Shown here piece by piece: positions 2,275-20,774 of a stretch of 22,151 bases of DNA. Origin of the DNA: a virus. A program made the position numbers and the translations under genes. Every line of letters starts with the position of its first letter. The first letter of the stretch is position 1. The notes beneath the pieces are model-generated. The model was given only the letters and a program-made list of their open reading frames with translations. It was not told the origin of the DNA and did no database searches. Location: positions 12-22,162 of the IMG/VR virus record IMGVR_UViG_3300000117_000304; one strand, 5' to 3'.

Positions 2275-4344
2275 ATGCAAAGTGACTCAATTTCAGAAAG
2301 CCTTACTTACGTAGGGAAAGAGCCGGACATTAAAACTTTACGTTATGCGTATGATCAAACTACAGTAGAGCTAGAAGCTTACTTTGATTTGTGTCGTACA
2401 AGCTATGACGATAGACGTAATTGGTGGGCTGGCAAATCTCGCGACCATCGCAAGCACGGAGCGGATGCTTTCCCTTGGGAAGGAGCTGCTGATATGGAGG
2501 CACACACTATCGATGAAAGAATTACTCGTCTTGTATCTCTGTTTATGTCTTCTCTTAATCGTTCTAATGTAAGAGCGTTTCCGGTTGAGAGTACAGATGT
2601 GCCAAGAAGTAAAGTAGTATCTAGTTTCTTGAAATGGATGGTGTCCAGTGGTTACATTCCTAGATTCAAGAGAGAGATGGAACTCGGTGCCAATTATCTT
2701 CTTGAGCGTGGTATTTTAATTACTTACGTAGGTTGGCACAGAGAGGACCGAAGATTCTTACAGCGTTTAGATCTAAATCAAATTGCTCAAATAGCTCCAG
2801 AGCTAGTTACTCTTATCGAAGAAGGTAAAGACGATGATGATTTAGTAACTTTACTTGAAGGAACATTTCCGGGAGTAACTAAGAAAAGAGCTAAGAAAGC
2901 TCTCAAGGATTTACGTAAAACCGGCGAAGCTGAGTTGCCGATAGTACGCAGACAAATAGATGCACCAGAGGTAAAGACACTAGCACCGGACGGAGACTTT
3001 TTCTTTCCTCCTTATGTTACAGATCCTCAGAGAGCACCGTACTGTTTTTGGAGAACTTACTACACAGCTCAAGAGCTAGAAAATAAAGTAGTGACTGACG
3101 GATGGGATGCTGACTTCGTTGAAGAAATGATAGACAAATATCGCGGCGTAAGTATAGATAGCATTGAACGCGAGCAAGAAGGTCGTAGAAGTACTACACT
3201 TACTGATAATGCTTATGAAGCAGAGGAATTAATTGAAATCATTTATGGTTATCAGCGTTTGATTGATCCAGAAGATGGTTCCGAAGGTATTTATTGCACA
3301 GTTTTCCACAGACAATATGATGGCGGCTATGCTAAGTTCGAGCTATTGAATGGCTACGAAGATTACCCAGTAGTAGTAACAAAACTTTCTGAAGATAGTA
3401 AGAGGCTCTATGATACTCAAACTATTCCAGACATCCTTCGCGGTATTCAGAATCAAGTAAAGGTTGAGCGGGATTCACGTATTGATAGAAACAGTCTAGC
3501 GACTCTACCTCCGATTCTACACCCCGTTGGTCAAGCACCAACAGATTGGGGTCCCGGAAGGATGATACCTTACCGCCGAAAGGGAGACCTTGATTTTGCT
3601 CCTACACCACCATCTCCGACTGGTTCTATTGAAATAGAAAAGACAATGGAAGCTCAAGCGGATAGATTGTGTGGACTAGATGAAACATCTCAGATCTCAC
3701 AAGTACGTAAACAGTTCTTAGTGGACAAGTTCTTACAACACAACGCAGAGGTTTTACAGATGTGTTATCGTTGTTTTCAGCGGTTTGGACCGGACTCAGT
3801 ATTCTTTAGAGTTACCGGATCGCCAGACCCCATAGTTTTTAACAAGGGCAACCCAGATGAGAACTATGACATAATCATATCATATGATGTCCTCAATTCG
3901 GATCCAGAAACTCAAGAACAGAAACTCCAACAGTTGGTCCAACTTACGCAACTCGATAGGAGCGGTCGCATTAACATTGACTCTTTACTTGATGCAGCTG
4001 CTAATAATATTGACCCGGTACTCGCTGATCGTATTCTACAACCTACGGAAGCGGCTTTTGAACAAGTTGTAAACCAAGTAACTGATGATTTATCTAAGAT
4101 ATTTGCTGGTATCGAAATGCCAGCACGTCCTAACGGTGCACAAATTGCGATGCAAGTTATTGAGCAGTATGTTGCTCAGCCAGATGTTGCTGCTCGCTTG
4201 CAGTCCGATGAAGCCTTCCGAGCACGTATCGAAAAGTACGTTGGACAGTACACCTTCCAAATGCAGCAACAACAAAATGCTCAAATCGGAAGAGTGGGAA
4301 CAGAGCCAGCACAAATGGGTAACATCCAGACACAAGGAATATAA
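2275..4344 (+). CDS. Portal protein
   Basis: This 689-residue protein is called as the portal, the dodecameric ring at the capsid vertex through which DNA enters and leaves. The size, the position two genes after terminase and before scaffold and capsid, and the overall make-up all fit: an N-terminal helical region with WW/PWEGAADMEAHTIDERI (about residues 45-80), a long central alpha/beta region, a conserved-looking stretch LRGIQNQVKVERDSRIDRNS, and a C-terminal helical, Gln-rich tail (QMQQQQNAQ). Portals of this length are typical of podoviruses. There is no clear Shine-Dalgarno before the ATG; instead a promoter-like motif ends 12 bases upstream. The PWEGAAD segment is commonly seen in portals of this kind (from memory). 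Confidence 0.88.
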   Translation: MQSDSISESLTYVGKEPDIKTLRYAYDQTTVELEAYFDLCRTSYDDRRNWWAGKSRDHRKHGADAFPWEGAADMEAHTIDERITRLVSLFMSSLNRSNVRAFPVESTDVPRSKVVSSFLKWMVSSGYIPRFKREMELGANYLLERGILITYVGWHREDRRFLQRLDLNQIAQIAPELVTLIEEGKDDDDLVTLLEGTFPGVTKKRAKKALKDLRKTGEAELPIVRRQIDAPEVKTLAPDGDFFFPPYVTDPQRAPYCFWRTYYTAQELENKVVTDGWDADFVEEMIDKYRGVSIDSIEREQEGRRSTTLTDNAYEAEELIEIIYGYQRLIDPEDGSEGIYCTVFHRQYDGGYAKFELLNGYEDYPVVVTKLSEDSKRLYDTQTIPDILRGIQNQVKVERDSRIDRNSLATLPPILHPVGQAPTDWGPGRMIPYRRKGDLDFAPTPPSPTGSIEIEKTMEAQADRLCGLDETSQISQVRKQFLVDKFLQHNAEVLQMCYRCFQRFGPDSVFFRVTGSPDPIVFNKGNPDENYDIIISYDVLNSDPETQEQKLQQLVQLTQLDRSGRINIDSLLDAAANNIDPVLADRILQPTEAAFEQVVNQVTDDLSKIFAGIEMPARPNGAQIAMQVIEQYVAQPDVAARLQSDEAFRARIEKYVGQYTFQMQQQQNAQIGRVGTEPAQMGNIQTQGI

Positions 4345-4345
4345 T

Positions 4346-4984
4346 ATGGCATATACATCACTGAGAGAAGCTTTCATAGGTCTTCAAGCTACACAGCAAC
4401 CAAAAGATTTATTCGGAGTATATACCACTTCACCTATGCCATCACCTCCAGATATGGCTACTGCTTTTGACGATACCATAATTGGATCTCAATATGATCC
4501 GTTTGATGCCGGTCAATATATGGATACATTGGAAAAGGATGAAGGTTTTATCTCAGTAGCTAAAAGATTACCCAAAGGAAAGGATCCAGAAACTGGAGAA
4601 ACAATATACGAAGAGTTTCCCACTGGAGCATTTGGGGACTACGGACCTCATATAAAGGTAGGACAAGTTTTTACCAAAGAACAAGACAGACCTAGATTTC
4701 AAAAAAGAGCTCAAGAAAGAGTTGATTACTTAAAAAAAACTTTTCCAAACTTTGCTGATTTTCCTTTTGACGTAAGAAACAGTATGGTAAGCTCAACATA
4801 CAGAGGAAGTTTACCCGGAAGCCCAAAAACAATTAAATTTATTCAAGAAGGAAACTTTATGGAAGCCGGAGAAGAGTTCCTAAGAAATCAAGAGTACAAA
4901 GATGCTGAAGGTAGTGAGTACAAAAGTGGTATTAGACCAAGAATGGAAAGATTGTCTAATGCACTCAAGGGAATGGCTGAATAG
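4346..4984 (+). CDS. Lysozyme-like (GH24-type) virion-associated muramidase
   Basis: This 212-residue protein starts at the ATG one base after the portal stop. It has an AAGGA ribosome site 5-9 bases upstream, so the longer frame reaching back to 4085 inside the portal gene is rejected. Residues 62-68 (LEKDEGF) give a catalytic-Glu candidate at 66, followed by FGDYGPHIKVG (97-107), which matches the position of the active-site strand of phage lysozymes. The C-terminal part (RNSMVSSTYRG, then FMEAGEEFLRNQEY) fits the helical half of the fold. There is no signal peptide or membrane segment. Its place between portal and scaffold suggests a virion-borne enzyme that opens peptidoglycan during DNA entry, but it may also be the only endolysin here. 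Confidence 0.72.
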   Translation: MAYTSLREAFIGLQATQQPKDLFGVYTTSPMPSPPDMATAFDDTIIGSQYDPFDAGQYMDTLEKDEGFISVAKRLPKGKDPETGETIYEEFPTGAFGDYGPHIKVGQVFTKEQDRPRFQKRAQERVDYLKKTFPNFADFPFDVRNSMVSSTYRGSLPGSPKTIKFIQEGNFMEAGEEFLRNQEYKDAEGSEYKSGIRPRMERLSNALKGMAE

Positions 4985-12125: not shown

Positions 12126-12284
12126 ATGGAGGAGACACTACAAAGATTATCCGTAGGAATCTTCGGATGGATAGCCACGGATACATTACAGAGCGTAGAC
12201 CTTGTGCTTGGTGTAGTGTCTAAATCAGTTCTAATCACTTTAACAGTTTTATCAATCTATAAACTATGGAAGGAACTTAAATGA
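12126..12284 (+). CDS. 52-residue single-span membrane protein
   Basis: The ATG one base after the preceding stop gives a 52-residue product with an amphipathic N-terminus and one hydrophobic segment at about residues 24-48 (VDLVLGVVSKSVLITLTVLS). A longer frame starts at 12069 but overlaps the upstream gene by 56 bases and has no ribosome site, so it is rejected. The stop overlaps the holin start as ATGA. It may be a second holin, an antiholin or a pinholin-like protein; position next to the holin is the main argument. Confidence 0.62.
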   Translation: MEETLQRLSVGIFGWIATDTLQSVDLVLGVVSKSVLITLTVLSIYKLWKELK

Positions 12285-12688
12285 GTACAGAATTATTAGC
12301 AATGTTAGGGGGCGGAGCAAGTGGATTCTTGTTTAAGCTTATTGGTACTTTAGTACAAAATCAAGCAGCCGTCACTGAAGGACTTATCAAAAAACAAAAA
12401 GCATCGGACGCAAGTGCAGATGCAGCAGCAGCTAGGGTTGATGCCTTTGGTGCTTGGACTAGACGTATTATCGTACTAACCGTACTATTCGGCGTAATTA
12501 TTGCACCATTCATATTAGCTCATAGTGAAGAAGGTGTAACAGTTGCTAGTGAATACAGCAAATGGTTTGGGTTCGCTAAAGGAACAACGTACCAAACTCT
12601 TCACGGTTATATTATTCTCCCCGAAATTAAGACAGCCGTTATCAGTATAATCAGTTTCTATTTCGGAAGTGCAGCAGTAAGTAAATAG
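12281..12688 (+). CDS. Holin, 3TM superfamily-like
   Basis: This 135-residue protein fits the three-span phage holins of the type also found in gene transfer agents. There is a Gly-rich N-terminal hydrophobic segment (about 5-26, LLAMLGGGASGFLFKLIG), a charged Ala/Asp helix (36-62), a clear span at 63-80 (IIVLTVLFGVIIAPFILA), a Trp-containing loop and a final span at 111-133. Holins form inner-membrane holes that time lysis. It begins on an ATGA overlap with the 52-residue membrane gene. No endolysin gene lies beside it; the lysozyme-like gene is about 8 kb upstream. Confidence 0.75.
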   Translation: MSTELLAMLGGGASGFLFKLIGTLVQNQAAVTEGLIKKQKASDASADAAAARVDAFGAWTRRIIVLTVLFGVIIAPFILAHSEEGVTVASEYSKWFGFAKGTTYQTLHGYIILPEIKTAVISIISFYFGSAAVSK

Positions 12689-12709: not shown

Positions 12710-13531
12710 ATGGATAAGAAAACTGCAAAACAAAACCTCAAAGAACTGCGAGATTCTTTGTCCAGAGTATTGGACGGCAAAGAGTATCAAAGTGCTGACG
12801 AGATTAAAGAGCAGTCTAAGGAAGCTATCCAACAAGCTAGGTCAGCTGGTAAGCAACTTAAAAAGTCGCTTCTTGAAAAAGTAAAAGATCTTCCAGTTGT
12901 ACAGAAGGTTAGTGAACTAGGCACTGCCGGTAGTGTTGCTGTAAGTACAGCCGCAGTTGCTCAGACAACGGTTGCGGTAGATCAAACAGAAGTCTTCGTG
13001 GCAAGTGTCGCAAATGATGTTGTCGAACAGCGTATTGAAGTTCCAATGTTCATTGATACTTTTGTTGACTTCCACGAGTTGAATGATTGGGGTCAAGTGG
13101 TTATCGCCGAGAAGATCGCTGCGGTTTCCGAACTACCACAGATTTCTCAACCATCTGTTGACGCTTCGGACACCACACAAGAAACCTCTCCTTCTTCACA
13201 AAGTTCTTCCGCCGAAACTCCCGCTCAAACTTCTCAGCCCGAACAAACTGAAAAATCACAAGAGTCACAAAACAAAGGGCAAGAATCAAAAGGAGAGAGT
13301 TCATCTAAAAATAGCGATTCAGAAAAAGATAACAAAGGTAAGCAAGACTCAGCCCAAGAATCCAAAACTGAAGAACAGAAAGAATCTCAAGAAAGTAAAT
13401 CATCCTCCGAGACTAGCACAAAGTCAGAGTCTGTCAAGGCTGATGTACCTATAATAGAAACTCCCTTTGAACCAATGAATGACGATATGAAGCCTCATTC
13501 AAGTCTAAGACAAGTGTCACCCACAAACTAA
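12710..13531 (+). CDS. Unknown protein with helical N-terminus and Ser/Glu/Lys/Gln-rich tail
   Basis: This 273-residue protein starts at an ATG 21 bases after the holin stop; a TTG six bases earlier is also in frame. Residues 1-70 are charged, coiled-coil-like helices. Residues 71-100 are a weakly hydrophobic Ala/Val/Thr segment (GTAGSVAVSTAAVAQTTVAV). Residues 100-145 are acidic and structured-looking. Residues about 146-240 are low-complexity Ser, Glu, Gln and Lys, and a short tail (VPIIETPFEPMNDDM) closes it. The order of helix, weak hydrophobic patch and long flexible linker beside a holin allows a role in envelope disruption or virion structure, but I recognise no family. It ends on a TAATG overlap with the next gene. 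Confidence 0.72.
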   Translation: MDKKTAKQNLKELRDSLSRVLDGKEYQSADEIKEQSKEAIQQARSAGKQLKKSLLEKVKDLPVVQKVSELGTAGSVAVSTAAVAQTTVAVDQTEVFVASVANDVVEQRIEVPMFIDTFVDFHELNDWGQVVIAEKIAAVSELPQISQPSVDASDTTQETSPSSQSSSAETPAQTSQPEQTEKSQESQNKGQESKGESSSKNSDSEKDNKGKQDSAQESKTEEQKESQESKSSSETSTKSESVKADVPIIETPFEPMNDDMKPHSSLRQVSPTN

Positions 13532-13701
13532 TGGAATTTTTTAAATATATATTCGATAACTACAAGGACAATATGCTAGGTATGGCATTTGCCTATATTG
13601 GTATAATATCTATAGTGATGATGTTTTTACCTAAAGAGAACTTCATTTCCAAACTCTTTCGAGAGTTCGCCTCAATCTTTACATCCCTATTCAAAAAATG
13701 A
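13531..13701 (+). CDS. 56-residue single-span membrane protein
   Basis: This small frame begins on the TAATG overlap with the preceding gene and ends on an ATGA overlap with the following one. Residues 1-14 are amphipathic (MEFFKYIFDNYKDN). Residues 15-33 are one membrane span (MLGMAFAYIGIISIVMMFL), and the rest is a basic amphipathic helix (FISKLFREFASIFTSLFKK). The shape would fit a lysis accessory or a partner of the next, PEP-CTERM-like membrane protein. No family is recognised. Confidence 0.68.
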   Translation: MEFFKYIFDNYKDNMLGMAFAYIGIISIVMMFLPKENFISKLFREFASIFTSLFKK

Positions 13702-13979
13702 GCCACGAAGCCACAACACGTCCACTAGCTATAACATACTCCGATTACGATTGGGGTGATAACTTTGCATCAAATGATTACAATTACTTCTATGTACCTT
13801 CTATTCCAGAATGGGCATACAGTGAGTTTGATGGATTACTATACGAAGGAGTACAGTATAATTGGAGTGAAGTGGATTACAGACTTTCGGTAGAGTATAA
13901 CAGTGTACCAGAGCCAGCATTTGTTGGTTTATTTATGGGTATCTGTTTATTGGCATTAACTATATTTAAAAGAAAATAA
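13698..13979 (+). CDS. Protein with PEP-CTERM/exosortase-type C-terminal tail
   Basis: This 93-residue protein has an acidic, very aromatic N-terminal region (Tyr, Trp, Phe and Asp throughout residues 10-68) and a tail from residue 69. The tail begins VPEP, continues with about 16 hydrophobic residues (AFVGLFMGICLLALTIF) and ends KRK. This is the tripartite layout of PEP-CTERM sorting signals, which exosortases recognise at the inner membrane of many Gram-negative bacteria with extracellular polysaccharide. What is missing is an N-terminal signal peptide. The frame upstream (to a stop at 13632) has no start codon and no hydrophobic run, so none is hidden there. It may instead be a C-tail-anchored membrane protein. 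Substrate status is inference. Confidence 0.7.
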   Translation: MSHEATTRPLAITYSDYDWGDNFASNDYNYFYVPSIPEWAYSEFDGLLYEGVQYNWSEVDYRLSVEYNSVPEPAFVGLFMGICLLALTIFKRK

Positions 13980-14074: not shown

Positions 14075-14199
14075 TGGATCTACCTAAAAATCTCAGTGCA
14101 AAGCAGAAAAAATTAGCTAAACTAGCTATTCCTTACGATAAGATTACAGCGGAGGATTTACAAAAATTAAGAAAAGATGGCAAGAAAAACGAAAGGTAA
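14074..14199 (+). CDS. 41-residue basic helical protein
   Basis: The product is Lys-rich and probably helical (LSAKQKKLAKLAIPYDKITA, then EDLQKLRKDGKKNER). It starts on a TAATG overlap with the 30-residue gene, and its 3' end overlaps the start of the next gene by 23 bases. No motif is recognised; charge and company suggest nucleic-acid binding. Confidence 0.5.
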   Translation: MDLPKNLSAKQKKLAKLAIPYDKITAEDLQKLRKDGKKNER

Positions 14200-14338
14200 T
14201 AAAATCTGTCCAGCTGGTGTAGCTTGGGCTCGTAGAACTTTTGACAAGTATCCATCCGCTTATGCGAATATGGCTGCTTCAAAGTATTGCAAGGATCCGA
14301 ATTATGCAAAGGGAGCTAAACGTAAAAAGAAAAAGTAA
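14177..14338 (+). CDS. 53-residue basic protein with CPxG...YCKDPNYA motif
   Basis: The protein is strongly basic at both ends (MARKTKGNK and KRKKKK) and carries Cys at residues 11 and 38 in CPAGVAWARRTFDKYPSAYA and YCKDPNYAKG. I recall this motif from small uncharacterised proteins of marine phages. Paired Cys could bind metal or form a disulfide; the basic tails suggest DNA contact. It overlaps the preceding gene by 23 bases, and its stop overlaps the next ATG (TAATG). Confidence 0.65.
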   Translation: MARKTKGNKICPAGVAWARRTFDKYPSAYANMAASKYCKDPNYAKGAKRKKKK

Positions 14339-14583
14339 TGGGTGAACTCAAAAAGTGGAGAGAACAAAACTGGGTCAGAATCGGAATTGACGGTTCAATC
14401 AAAGGACCTTGTGGAACCTCAAAAGATAAGAAAAGACCAGACCGCTGTCTTCCAATGGCTAAAGCGAAGAGCCTCACTAAGTCTGAAAGAGCGGCTACAG
14501 CTCGCAAGAAAAAAGCTGGCGGAGCAAAAGGAAAACAATTCGTAGCTAATACACCTAAAGCAAAAGTGAGAACTAAGAAATAA
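14338..14583 (+). CDS. 81-residue basic Cys protein, DUF6321-like
   Basis: The N-terminus has WREQNWVRIG, followed by GPCGTSKDKKRPDRCLPMAK with Cys at residues 25 and 37, and the rest is a Lys/Arg/Ala-rich segment (SLTKSERAATARKKKA) ending in KVRTKK. This order, Trp-Val start, CG and C motif, Ser/Thr-Lys-x-Glu-Arg helix and basic end, resembles the family I remember as DUF6321, found in phages and large viruses; the name is not certain. It is coupled by TAATG at both ends. A DNA-binding virion role is inference. Confidence 0.68.
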   Translation: MGELKKWREQNWVRIGIDGSIKGPCGTSKDKKRPDRCLPMAKAKSLTKSERAATARKKKAGGAKGKQFVANTPKAKVRTKK

Positions 14584-14876
14584 TGGCAAAGAATCCTAAG
14601 AAAACTATGAGATGTGGCGAAGTTCGCCGAAGTACTCGTCCCGGTAAAAAGATTATGAAACTCTACTGCCAAGGTGGAGAGCGTAAACTTGTACACGCTG
14701 GTGCCAAAGGATATGGTCACAACTATTCTCCAGCAGCTAGGAAATCATTTAGAGCACGTCACAAATGCGACACAGCTAAACCCGGAACTGCAAAGCACTT
14801 AGCTTGCACAGAACTATGGAAAGGTCCCGGAGGTAGAAAGAAATCATCACCTAAATCTAGAAGAGGTAAGTATTAA
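14583..14876 (+). CDS. 97-residue basic four-Cys protein
   Basis: Cys residues at 11, 29, 62 and 75 lie in a protein that is about one third Lys, Arg and His. The most distinctive part is YSPAARKSFRARHKCDTAKP (48-67) followed by AKHLACTELW. I recall the ARKSFRARHxC motif from small marine phage proteins of unknown function. Four Cys plus several His could build a zinc site, and the Arg/Lys tail (GRKKSSPKSRRGKY) suggests DNA binding. It is coupled by TAATG to both neighbours. Confidence 0.66.
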   Translation: MAKNPKKTMRCGEVRRSTRPGKKIMKLYCQGGERKLVHAGAKGYGHNYSPAARKSFRARHKCDTAKPGTAKHLACTELWKGPGGRKKSSPKSRRGKY

Positions 14877-17210: not shown

Positions 17211-20200
17211 ATGGAGTTCGATCCCAAGGCTTACTTGGAGAAAAAATCTAAAGAAGACTTTGATCCAGATACTTACTTATCGTCAAAAGAAAAATTTGAT
17301 CCAAATGCTTACTTAGCATCTAAGGAAGAGTTTGATCCAGACGCTTATTTAACTTCAAAAGAGGATTTTGATCCAAATGCTTATCTTGCTTCTAAGGAGG
17401 AAGATGAGGGTTCATCTTTGGCTAAAACTGCCGCTGGATTTGTTACAGATATTGCAATAGCGGAAACATCTAGATTAGGTGGAGCAGCCGCTGGAGCAGC
17501 TATAGGTACAGCTATAGCTCCCGGAGTAGGTACAGCTATAGGAGCTGGCATTGGATACGTTGTAGGTGCACTCGGTGGTGGTGCGGCTGGATCTAAAGTA
17601 CGCCAAAATATAATCGACCCAAATGCAGAATTAGACCAAGGTCAGATGGTAGCAGATGCCTTGATAAACCTTATACCGGGAGTCGGCGTAGGTAAATCTG
17701 TAGTAAAAGGTATAGCTTCTCAAGCAGCAATAGGTGCTGGTATTTCTGGTGGTGCCGAGATTGTTGAATCCGTAATCAACAAAAAAGAATTACCAACTTT
17801 AGAAGATTTAGCAAAAGCTGGAGCAACTGGTGCAGTCTTAGGTGGAGGACTTGGTATTACTGGAGAAGCTTTCAGCAAAGCGTACGCAAAGTTTGCTGGT
17901 ATGCCTACTCGTAATTTAACGGACGCATTTCGCAGAGGTGATCCAGATGCTAAAATAATTATAGATGGAGTAGAGAAAACATCAAAAGAGTTTACCGATG
18001 AAGTAGCTAAAAGATACCAAGATATTGGAATCAACATAAGAGATAAGTACGATGATGAATTTATTAGAGCAAAACTATTGCAAGATATATCTGCTGGTGG
18101 GCAACTAAAAACTGAAGGAGGAAAACTAAAGGTTACTTCAGATTCAATGGATTACTACTTACAAAGAAGATTGGCTGAAGGGAAGATTGATAATAAACTT
18201 CAAAGAGTAGAAGAAGAAATGAATTTAGATGCTGCGTTTCTTTTAAATAAATCAGACGAAATAGGTAAAACTCCAGCTGAGTTATCTAAGGGTATAAATG
18301 ATTATTTGTACGCAAAACACGCAGTTGCTTACAACAAGGCTAATCGCACAAAGTTCGGCGGTGATGGAGCTGCCGGTATATCTACAGATGAAGCTCAGTC
18401 AATAATTAAGAAGTTTGAAGATAGCGGATTAGATAAAACTTTAAAAAATTCTATAGATAATAGAAAAAATCTTTCTAGAGAAATACTAGATACTATTGAA
18501 GAAGGTGGGCTTATATCAAAGAAAGAAGCTGACAGATTACGTAAAGAGTTTCCGGACTACGTACCACTAAATCGTATAATGGATACAGATGATGTAGCCG
18601 ATGCACAAAAGATTATAACTTCTAGTTCTACTAGATATGAAACCTTAAAAAGTGGGGTACGTAGAGCATTTGGTTCCGAAAGAGAAGTATCAGATATATC
18701 CCAAAATATATTAAATAATTTATCTGGTGCAGTTCGCCGAGCTGAAGTCAATAAAGCTAATCAAGCATTTGTGAGACTTCTTATGAGCAATAAGAAAGCG
18801 GCTAAAGATATGGGGATTAGAGTAAGGAAGCCTAAAATAGTTGGAACCAAAGTAGTCAAAGATATGTCTGAAGAGGCTCAACTAGCTAGGTCATTAGGGA
18901 AAAAACCGAAATCAATTAAAGTTCCTATTTATGAAAACGCGGATTCAAATATCTTAACAGTATTTATAAATGGAGAGAGAAGATTTGTGGAGTTCTCGGA
19001 TCCCTTGTTAGCTAGAACATTCAAGGGTGCAGATAAAAGAGAGCTTAACTCAATATTAAAAGCTATGTACGGAATGAATAGATTCCTTGGTAGTATGTAC
19101 ACTAAACTTTCTCCAGAGTTCGTTATACCCAATTTGTTCCGTGACCGTTCTGAAGCTTTTGTAAATAATCTAGCCAAGATGAAAGGTTTGCAAGCACTAA
19201 AGACTCTTAATCCCATTGAAGATATGAGAGTTATCCGCCGAAATCTATTCGGTGGAATGACAGCTGATACTCCCCGAAAAAGAGAACTAGACAGATTGTA
19301 CAAGCAATTCAAGGAAGATGGTGGAAGCACTGGTGGTCTTGGTTTAAGCACAATAAAAGATATTGAGAAAAGAATGGATGAATTATCCAAGAATTTGAAT
19401 GCTCCCTCTAAAAGCAAAATAAAAGCTCTCAATGAACTTATAAATAATATTAATGAAATCGTTGAGGACTCTACTCGTTTTGCTACATACAGAAATGGTT
19501 TAGCTTCTGGATTGACTAGAGATCAAGCTGCATTTGCAGCTCGTAATAGTTCTTTCGATCCTAAACTAAAAGGTAGAGAAGGCGATGCACTAAAGGCAAT
19601 TTATCTATTCTCCAATCCGGCTATTCAAGGTGCTAAAAACTTTTTAAGAAGTATTAAGAATCCAAGGGTTGCTGCTAGTGTAGGTGGTGGATTAATAGCT
19701 ATTACTACAGCCCTCGATAAGTACAACTCAATGATAGATGAGGACTACCGTCAGAAAATTCCTAAATGGAAGCTTGATAAGCACTTAACTATTATAAGAG
19801 GAAAGAATGAAGATGGATCTTTAGATTACCTATCTATTCCTATTGGTTACTCTATGGTTCCATTTAAGATGGCTGCGGATTTAACTCAGCGTATTGCTAG
19901 ACAAGATGGTGAACTAGATAACGTAAAGGAAGTTGCCTCTAGTTTCGGTCAAGCAGTTATTGACTCATATAATCCTATGGGTGGTTCTCCAGTTCCAACT
20001 ATACTAAGACCTATGACTGAGTTAGCTCAGAACAAAGATGGATTAGGTAGAGATATTAGACCCTCTTGGTTGGAGAATAAAAACATCAGTGCAACAGAAC
20101 AGATATTCCCTTGGACTGCCGACACCCAAGGCGGCGAGTTAGCTATGTCAATAGCGGATCAACTTAAAGATATGGGATACGAGGTTTCTCCAGAGAACCT

Positions 20201-20774
20201 ATTATACTTGTATCAGACTTACACTGGAGGTCCCGGTCAAACGGTAAAAAGATTATTTGATTTAACCTCAAAGCTGTATAATAATGAGGCAATAAATAGA
20301 TCCGATTTCCCAATAGCGAGAAGATTTTACGGAAGAACTTTTACTGATGTATTCGAGAAAAGAACTGGCGATAGAGCTATTATAGAAAACTTAGAGAAGC
20401 AAGAAAACACCGACTCAGCAAAGGCGAGCAGAATAGCTTACCAAATTATAAAGAGATATGATGAGGCACCCGATGAAGATAAACAAAGAGTACTAAATGA
20501 TTTATTGTCACAGCCGGAGTCTAATGCTGCTGTTCAAAGAAGGGTTCAGAATAAATTAGAAGATAGAGCCAAAGGTCTTACCTCAGTGGATAGACAAGCT
20601 AAAAATCTTACGGTAGTAAAACGAGCAGAGTACTTTAAGGATAAAATAAATTCTCTTCCTCCAGAAAAAGTACAGCCCTACATAAATGAAATGATAGAGA
20701 AGCGAGTAATGACTCCTAAGGTTATAGATACAATAAAAGATACTGAGTCATTTAAACAATTCTTTGGTCAATAA
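17211..20774 (+). CDS. Very large internal/ejection protein with LPD38-like domain
   Basis: This 1187-residue protein has four distinct parts. Residues 2-64 hold five copies of a 12-14 residue unit FDPxAYLxSKE. Residues about 75-185 are Gly/Ala-rich, with GAAAGAAIGTAIAPGVG and similar runs forming glycine zippers that can insert in membranes. Residues about 280-560 are a charged helical region containing LRKEFPDYVPLNR. Residues about 630-830 (SPEFVIPNLFRDRSEAF, TRFATYRNGLASGLTRDQAA, then ALKAIYLFSNPAIQGAKNF) resemble the large polyvalent protein domain LPD38 as I know it. Such proteins are thought to travel with the DNA into the host; this one probably builds the membrane-crossing channel. 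It ends one base before the A-run of the convergent hairpin. Confidence 0.82.
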   Translation: MEFDPKAYLEKKSKEDFDPDTYLSSKEKFDPNAYLASKEEFDPDAYLTSKEDFDPNAYLASKEEDEGSSLAKTAAGFVTDIAIAETSRLGGAAAGAAIGTAIAPGVGTAIGAGIGYVVGALGGGAAGSKVRQNIIDPNAELDQGQMVADALINLIPGVGVGKSVVKGIASQAAIGAGISGGAEIVESVINKKELPTLEDLAKAGATGAVLGGGLGITGEAFSKAYAKFAGMPTRNLTDAFRRGDPDAKIIIDGVEKTSKEFTDEVAKRYQDIGINIRDKYDDEFIRAKLLQDISAGGQLKTEGGKLKVTSDSMDYYLQRRLAEGKIDNKLQRVEEEMNLDAAFLLNKSDEIGKTPAELSKGINDYLYAKHAVAYNKANRTKFGGDGAAGISTDEAQSIIKKFEDSGLDKTLKNSIDNRKNLSREILDTIEEGGLISKKEADRLRKEFPDYVPLNRIMDTDDVADAQKIITSSSTRYETLKSGVRRAFGSEREVSDISQNILNNLSGAVRRAEVNKANQAFVRLLMSNKKAAKDMGIRVRKPKIVGTKVVKDMSEEAQLARSLGKKPKSIKVPIYENADSNILTVFINGERRFVEFSDPLLARTFKGADKRELNSILKAMYGMNRFLGSMYTKLSPEFVIPNLFRDRSEAFVNNLAKMKGLQALKTLNPIEDMRVIRRNLFGGMTADTPRKRELDRLYKQFKEDGGSTGGLGLSTIKDIEKRMDELSKNLNAPSKSKIKALNELINNINEIVEDSTRFATYRNGLASGLTRDQAAFAARNSSFDPKLKGREGDALKAIYLFSNPAIQGAKNFLRSIKNPRVAASVGGGLIAITTALDKYNSMIDEDYRQKIPKWKLDKHLTIIRGKNEDGSLDYLSIPIGYSMVPFKMAADLTQRIARQDGELDNVKEVASSFGQAVIDSYNPMGGSPVPTILRPMTELAQNKDGLGRDIRPSWLENKNISATEQIFPWTADTQGGELAMSIADQLKDMGYEVSPENLLYLYQTYTGGPGQTVKRLFDLTSKLYNNEAINRSDFPIARRFYGRTFTDVFEKRTGDRAIIENLEKQENTDSAKASRIAYQIIKRYDEAPDEDKQRVLNDLLSQPESNAAVQRRVQNKLEDRAKGLTSVDRQAKNLTVVKRAEYFKDKINSLPPEKVQPYINEMIEKRVMTPKVIDTIKDTESFKQFFGQ
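17215..17404 (+). repeat. In-frame tandem repeat encoding FDPxAYLxSKE units
   Basis: About five units of 36-42 bp, each close to TTTGATCCAGATGCTTACTT, lie at the 5' end of the 1187-residue gene. The last three units are exactly 36 bp apart. Synonymous differences between units show that the protein repeat is conserved while the DNA drifts. Confidence 0.85.

What the first reader, a model, noticed from the sequence alone, without database searches (positions are those of the whole stretch)
13698..13979. Phage gene with a PEP-CTERM-like sorting tail but no signal peptide
The C-terminus shows VPEP, a hydrophobic span and KRK, the exact three-part layout of exosortase substrates, at the very end of a short Tyr/Trp/Asp-rich protein. 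Host PEP-CTERM proteins also have a signal peptide, and this one has none. It could be a decoy or inhibitor of the host exosortase, a way to place a phage protein on or in the envelope, or a C-tail-anchored lysis or exclusion protein. It also suggests that the host carries the exosortase system (for example Verrucomicrobiota), a clue to the host of an otherwise unassigned phage.
Basis: partly seen in the sequence, partly recalled or inferred. Interest (0 to 1): 0.75.

Follow-up and report, generated by a model that had tools for sequence, protein, structure and literature searches.

The report
Phage envelope cassette with PEP-CTERM-type tail
This small phage protein ends in the kind of anchor that bacteria use to sort proteins to their surface, and it is one of several interchangeable versions in a gene set shared by unrelated, uncultured, mostly marine phages, which suggests that phages borrow a host surface-sorting route.

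Summary
ORF 13698-13979 (93 aa) ends in VPEP, a hydrophobic helix and KRK, and has no signal peptide. The window copy scores below the curated cut-offs (Pfam 14.3 of 20.7 bits; TIGR02595 12.7 of 16). A direct homologue, L034, passes both (21.8 and 21.4), so the resemblance is not chance.

The gene is one allele in a phage cassette: long-linker protein, 55-58 aa membrane protein, PEP-tailed protein. The cassette occurs in this 38-kb group and in much larger unrelated phages, which often add a predicted outer-membrane barrel. In all 63 informative loci the third gene ends in a VPE[P/S/Q], helix, basic tail. In two phages of the window's own group this locus instead holds a 197-aa signal-peptide protein on a homologous tail. 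DNA homology stops at the upstream gene and resumes just after PEP. Another pair keeps the N-part and swaps the tail, exactly after PEP.

Best reading: a phage ectodomain displayed at the host envelope (N-out), on an anchor probably read by host exosortase. A role in superinfection exclusion is favoured over lysis. A decoy is unlikely. The host, its exosortase and cleavage remain untested.

The parts
13698..13979 (+). MSHE-type protein, 93 aa: acidic Tyr/Trp-rich N-part (1-70), PEP (71-73), TM helix (about 73-90), KRK tail; no signal peptide
13908..13916 (+). PEP codons (CCA GAG CCA). Module boundary: in L063/L064 homology ends at the last base of the third codon; in L135/L139 homology to the window resumes at about 13924
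13531..13701 (+). 56-aa membrane protein (TM 15-33, then amphipathic helix), second cassette gene; overlaps the start of the PEP gene (ATGA)
12710..13531 (+). Long-linker protein (273 aa from ATG 12710; TTG 12704 possible): weakly hydrophobic LGTAGSVAVSTAAVAQ core, low-complexity S/Q/E/K linker, conserved C-terminal motif ETPFEPMNDDMKPHSS.RQVSPTN; first cassette gene
12281..12688 (+). 135-aa two-TM protein (phrog_38283, unknown function; holin-like by size and layout only), upstream neighbour; also in C75C1, which lacks the cassette

Best explanation
The ORF is one allele of a modular phage envelope cassette. Its C-tail is a PEP-CTERM-type anchor homologous to the tails of full signal-peptide PEP-CTERM proteins found in the same slot of related and unrelated phages. 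The acidic N-part (net charge -9 to -17) is probably moved across the inner membrane without a signal peptide (YidC-type N-tail translocation), leaving N out, PEP at the periplasmic face and K/R in the cytoplasm, which is the orientation that exosortase is proposed to read. Host exosortase then probably releases or re-anchors the ectodomain toward the outer surface, where it works with the linker and small TM proteins. The favoured role is to alter the infected cell's envelope, most likely superinfection exclusion; assistance in lysis is second. Shown: cassette, homology, swapping, PE conservation, charge layout. Inferred: topology, processing, role.
For: 34 homologues by sequence and 45 loci with the profile. 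All 63 informative of 71 cassette loci carry the tail as the downstream gene. Relatives L034 and L211 pass Pfam's PEP-CTERM cut-off. The PEP codons keep their residues while using 2-3 synonymous codons each, and residues on both sides vary (that set was chosen for having PEP, with two known exceptions, L075 and L163). In L135 and L139 DNA homology to the window ends at 13701 and resumes at 13924, with a 197-aa signal-peptide protein between. L063 and L064 are 95% identical up to the last base of PEP and then carry unrelated tails. Tail profiles of the two protein types align (hhalign 96.2%, E 2e-9). Linker and small TM proteins are homologous between the 38-kb and the large phages (93.4%, E 2e-7; 96.7%, E 4e-10). 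The charge layout predicts N-out in all 39. The swapped ectodomain models as a PPC-like jelly roll (VIA Z 8-10), a kind common in secreted proteins.
Against: The window copy itself fails both curated PEP-CTERM cut-offs and lacks a signal peptide, a feature of about 97% of PEP-CTERM proteins (PMC1569441). Some alleles carry PES or PEQ, and tail classes such as PEPADAG... do not resemble the canonical tail beyond PEP. No phage record tested carries exosortase, no host is known, and no homologue was found in the species genomes scanned. The relative C75C1 lacks the cassette, so it is dispensable. The role in exclusion rests on analogy only.
Confidence: 0.5

Rival explanations
1. Plain tail-anchored or N-out membrane protein: the PEP is a conserved helix cap or leftover of an ancestral PEP-CTERM protein, and no exosortase acts on it.
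For: Below cut-off in this copy; divergent PEPADAG tails and tails extended by about 25 residues; PES and PEQ alleles; no signal peptide.
Against: PE is never lost while its flanks vary; canonical PEPSTYALL..RR forms in the most divergent members (L034, L033, L076) and in the large phages; recombination junctions fall at PEP.
Confidence: 0.25
2. Lysis accessory, spanin-like: an envelope protein of the late operon that helps to breach the outer envelope.
For: It lies in the same gene run as a holin-like two-TM gene. An independent phage (L103) has a signal-peptide-less 97-aa PEP-CTERM protein (24.9 bits, over cut-off) downstream of a GH19 endolysin, where spanins often lie.
Against: No lipobox and no i/o-spanin layout. 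C75C1 has the holin-like gene but no cassette. No endolysin was recognised beside the cassette in the large phages. Swappable ectodomains are unusual for a lysis part.
Confidence: 0.18
3. Decoy or inhibitor of host exosortase.
For: It shows a sorting tail without the export signal.
Against: Other alleles in the same slot are full proteins with signal peptides and about 170-aa ectodomains, and the N-part is conserved over 60 residues; a decoy needs neither.
Confidence: 0.04

Closest known systems
PEP-CTERM / exosortase (EpsH, Xrt) substrates, PF07589 / TIGR02595
   Same: Three-part C-tail in the same order and spacing; charge layout; relatives in the same family and slot pass the curated models; signal-peptide alleles in the slot fit fully.
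   Different: Phage-encoded; this allele has no signal peptide and scores below cut-off; sits in a translationally coupled gene run, whereas most PEP-CTERM genes are single-gene operons (PMC1569441); PES/PEQ variants; no exosortase nearby.
Bacterial tail-anchored membrane proteins lacking signal sequences (PMC3087755)
   Same: No signal peptide, single C-terminal TM; N-out members are reported.
   Different: Those are not described as having a PEP boundary or swapped ectodomains on a shared tail.
Phage superinfection-exclusion envelope proteins (T5 Llp, T4 Imm and Sp; from general knowledge)
   Same: Small phage proteins set in the host envelope.
   Different: Llp is a lipoprotein and Imm/Sp are membrane proteins; none is known to me to use a PEP-CTERM tail. 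No sequence relation was tested.

Membership tests
PEP-CTERM sorted proteins | Near-invariant PEP at the start of the C-tail | tested here: met
   Residues 71-73; kept in 39 of 41 distinct MSHE-type proteins tallied; the other two are PEQ (L075) and PES (L163)
PEP-CTERM sorted proteins | Hydrophobic helix followed by a basic cluster at the C-terminus | tested here: met
   KD15 in tail at least 1.94, net charge after TM at least +1 in all 39; helix 73-92
PEP-CTERM sorted proteins | Score over curated cut-off of PF07589 / TIGR02595 | tested here: not met
   Window copy 14.3 of 20.7 and 12.7 of 16; homologue L034 21.8 and 21.4, met
PEP-CTERM sorted proteins | N-terminal signal peptide | tested here: not met
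   No N-terminal hydrophobic segment in any MSHE allele; apparent in other alleles of the slot, L135, L116 and others
PEP-CTERM sorted proteins | Host encodes exosortase | not testable with these tools
   Host unknown; phage records tested have none
PEP-CTERM sorted proteins | Cleavage at PEP by exosortase | not testable with these tools
   Needs experiment
Tail-anchored membrane proteins | No signal peptide and a single TM close to the C-terminus | tested here: met
   Hydropathy and model
Spanins | Lipobox, or paired inner/outer membrane subunits | tested here: not met
   The only Cys of P0001 lies inside the TM; no lipobox at the N-terminus. Pairing with another subunit was not tested
Superinfection exclusion proteins | Blocks entry of a second phage | not testable with these tools
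   Needs a host and an assay

The most novel reading that the evidence does not exclude
Uncultured, mostly marine phages of at least two unrelated lineages share a mobile envelope module (linker protein, small TM protein, exosortase-tailed surface protein, sometimes an outer-membrane barrel) that hijacks the host's exosortase to display swappable phage ectodomains on the infected cell. The PEP site is the recombination joint, and in the window's lineage the export signal has been replaced by an acidic N-tail.
Probability: 0.35. Interest if true: 0.85.

Novelty: new variant of a known kind. Interest (0 to 1): 0.62.

Why it matters
Exosortase sorting is known from cellular bacteria. No paper found in the searched library describes phage-encoded substrates. 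If true, phages exploit this route to remodel the infected cell's surface, PEP-type tails become a host clue for uncultured phages, and the cassette gives natural allele pairs (with and without signal peptide, PEP against PES/PEQ) to test what exosortases recognise.

Tried and rejected
Host by homologues in GTDB genomes: none for the PEP family or TerL. Host by named phages: the nearest, C75C1 (TerL 77%, MCP 70%), states no host and no paper was found; cassette proteins of the large phages have no match among 50,697 phage records; the TerL used for the large phages has only distant matches. The large phages first looked T4-like to me (wording in my notebook); Gp23 was not found, so I dropped the label. 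Fold of the MSHE N-part: low confidence (mean pLDDT 60; 41-42 over residues 1-30), so not searched. Chance motif: rejected. Pfam hits such as BppU-like_C and TMEM107 are weak. The barrel matched no family; its type rests on a signal peptide and sequence character only. In one search I scanned a wrong ORF for the L103 endolysin; one search has the right one.

Full report
What is there. The ORF at 13698-13979 encodes 93 aa ending VPEPAFVGLFMGICLLALTIFKRK. It begins inside the stop codon of a 56-aa membrane protein gene (13531-13701) and follows a 273-aa low-complexity protein (12710-13531) and a two-TM protein (12281-12688). The phage is a Caudoviricetes fragment (22,162-base record) with an SU10-type capsid protein. 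The closest named phage is C75C1 (TerL 77%, capsid 70% identical), which has no host on record and lacks the PEP gene, the 56-aa gene and the linker gene.

Is the motif real? Profile scores of this copy are below curated cut-offs. The family settles it: 34 homologues were found in viral contigs by sequence and 45 loci by profile. The most divergent members have textbook tails (L034 VPEPSTYALLAGFAVLIFTMIKRRNK; L076 IPEPSTTAIFLGIIALCMVSLNKLIRRT), and L034 passes both Pfam and TIGR02595. In 622 ORFs of related phages only cassette genes have such a tail, and shuffles give none. PEP positions use 3, 2 and 3 synonymous codons with the residues unchanged, while positions -3, -2, +4 and +5 vary freely (the set was chosen for PEP, and two distinct proteins outside it have PEQ, L075, and PES, L163). 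P-E is never lost.

A cassette, not a lone gene. A scan for [VI]PEPSTYA in viral contigs gave 36 loci. Some are prophage-flank or host-like genes, but a set of low-GC, apparently marine phage contigs carries PEP-CTERM proteins with signal peptides directly after a homologue of the window's 56-aa protein and of its linker protein. Profile comparison confirms homology of the linker protein (93.4%, E 2e-7), the small protein (96.7%, E 4e-10) and the PEP tail (96.2%, E 2e-9) between the 38-kb group and the large phages (contigs up to 141 kb). Of 71 loci with the small protein, 8 are cut off or broken; all other 63 have a [VIA]PE[PSQ], helix, basic tail protein downstream, nearly always as the next gene. 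In many large phages a 384-aa signal-peptide protein, probably an outer-membrane barrel, follows.

Modules swap at PEP. L135 and L139 belong to the window's own group (86-87% DNA identity over more than 1.1 kb upstream). Their homology to the window stops at 13701 (end of the small gene) and resumes at 13924, just after the PEP codons; between lies a 197-aa signal-peptide protein related to those of the large phages, with tail NIPESMHIGLLMGLCLLTLTLIKRK. Conversely L063 and L064 are 95% identical through the N-part up to the last base of PEP and then carry different tails. So N-parts and tails are exchanged and the PEP site is the joint. The 197-aa ectodomain models as a jelly roll nearest to PPC domains (VIA Z 8-10, mean pLDDT 65.5); such Z values are only moderately above background.

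How it probably works. In the signal-peptide alleles the tail must lie N-out. The MSHE alleles share the tail and, in all 39 tallied, have a net charge of -9 to -17 before the helix and +1 to +9 after it, so the positive-inside rule gives the same orientation. Bacterial signal-less N-out tail-anchored proteins are reported (PMC3087755), and Sec-independent translocation of acidic N-tails (ProW, Pf3 coat) is established knowledge that I did not check here. This puts PEP at the periplasmic face, where exosortase is proposed to read it (PMC1569441). Whether it is cut is unknown. Exchangeable ectodomains on a fixed anchor, encoded next to envelope proteins, fit a surface-modifying role; I favour superinfection exclusion. 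A lysis role is the main functional rival: an independent phage (L103) has a signal-less PEP-CTERM protein, over the Pfam cut-off, a short way downstream of a GH19 endolysin with two small ORFs between.

Membership. It works like PEP-CTERM proteins, and its tail is homologous to theirs. It is not filed as a canonical member because the signal peptide and the curated score are not met by this copy. Host exosortase and cleavage could not be tested. No paper in the searched library reports phage-encoded exosortase substrates; subscription journals are mostly not covered.

Noticed in passing
L103 1463-1756 (-): Independent phage with a signal-peptide-less 97-aa PEP-CTERM protein over the Pfam cut-off, a short way downstream of a GH19 endolysin.
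   Followed up: partly
L116 2080-3684 (+) and L114 1780-3276 (-): The linker protein has three repeats of KKK.GFFSKLLSGDDEEE type (basic, hydrophobic, acidic) in an acidic low-complexity chain, like sticker motifs.
   Followed up: no
L116 4693-5847 (+) and 22 other loci: A 384-aa signal-peptide, probably beta-barrel protein follows the PEP-CTERM gene in the large phages; no family match.
   Followed up: partly
L205 4815-5994 (+), L196 2133-3321 (+): Two PEP-CTERM-type proteins of different ectodomain types in tandem in one cassette.
   Followed up: no
L022, L023, L060, L061, L179: PEP tails extended by about 25 residues with an amphipathic segment resembling the C-terminus of the small TM protein.
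   Followed up: no
L090, L091, L102, L121: Another phage-contig protein: signal peptide, Asp run, VPEPSTYALFAGMIGLGYAVYRRKF tail; not seen in this cassette.
   Followed up: no
window 4343-4984: Possible T4-lysozyme-like protein inside the structural gene block; recognised by eye only, no Pfam match.
   Followed up: no
window 17211-20774: 1187-aa protein with the LPD38 domain, likely an internal or ejection protein.
   Followed up: no
window 14177-14876: Run of small, very basic, Cys-containing proteins whose order differs in C75C1.
   Followed up: no
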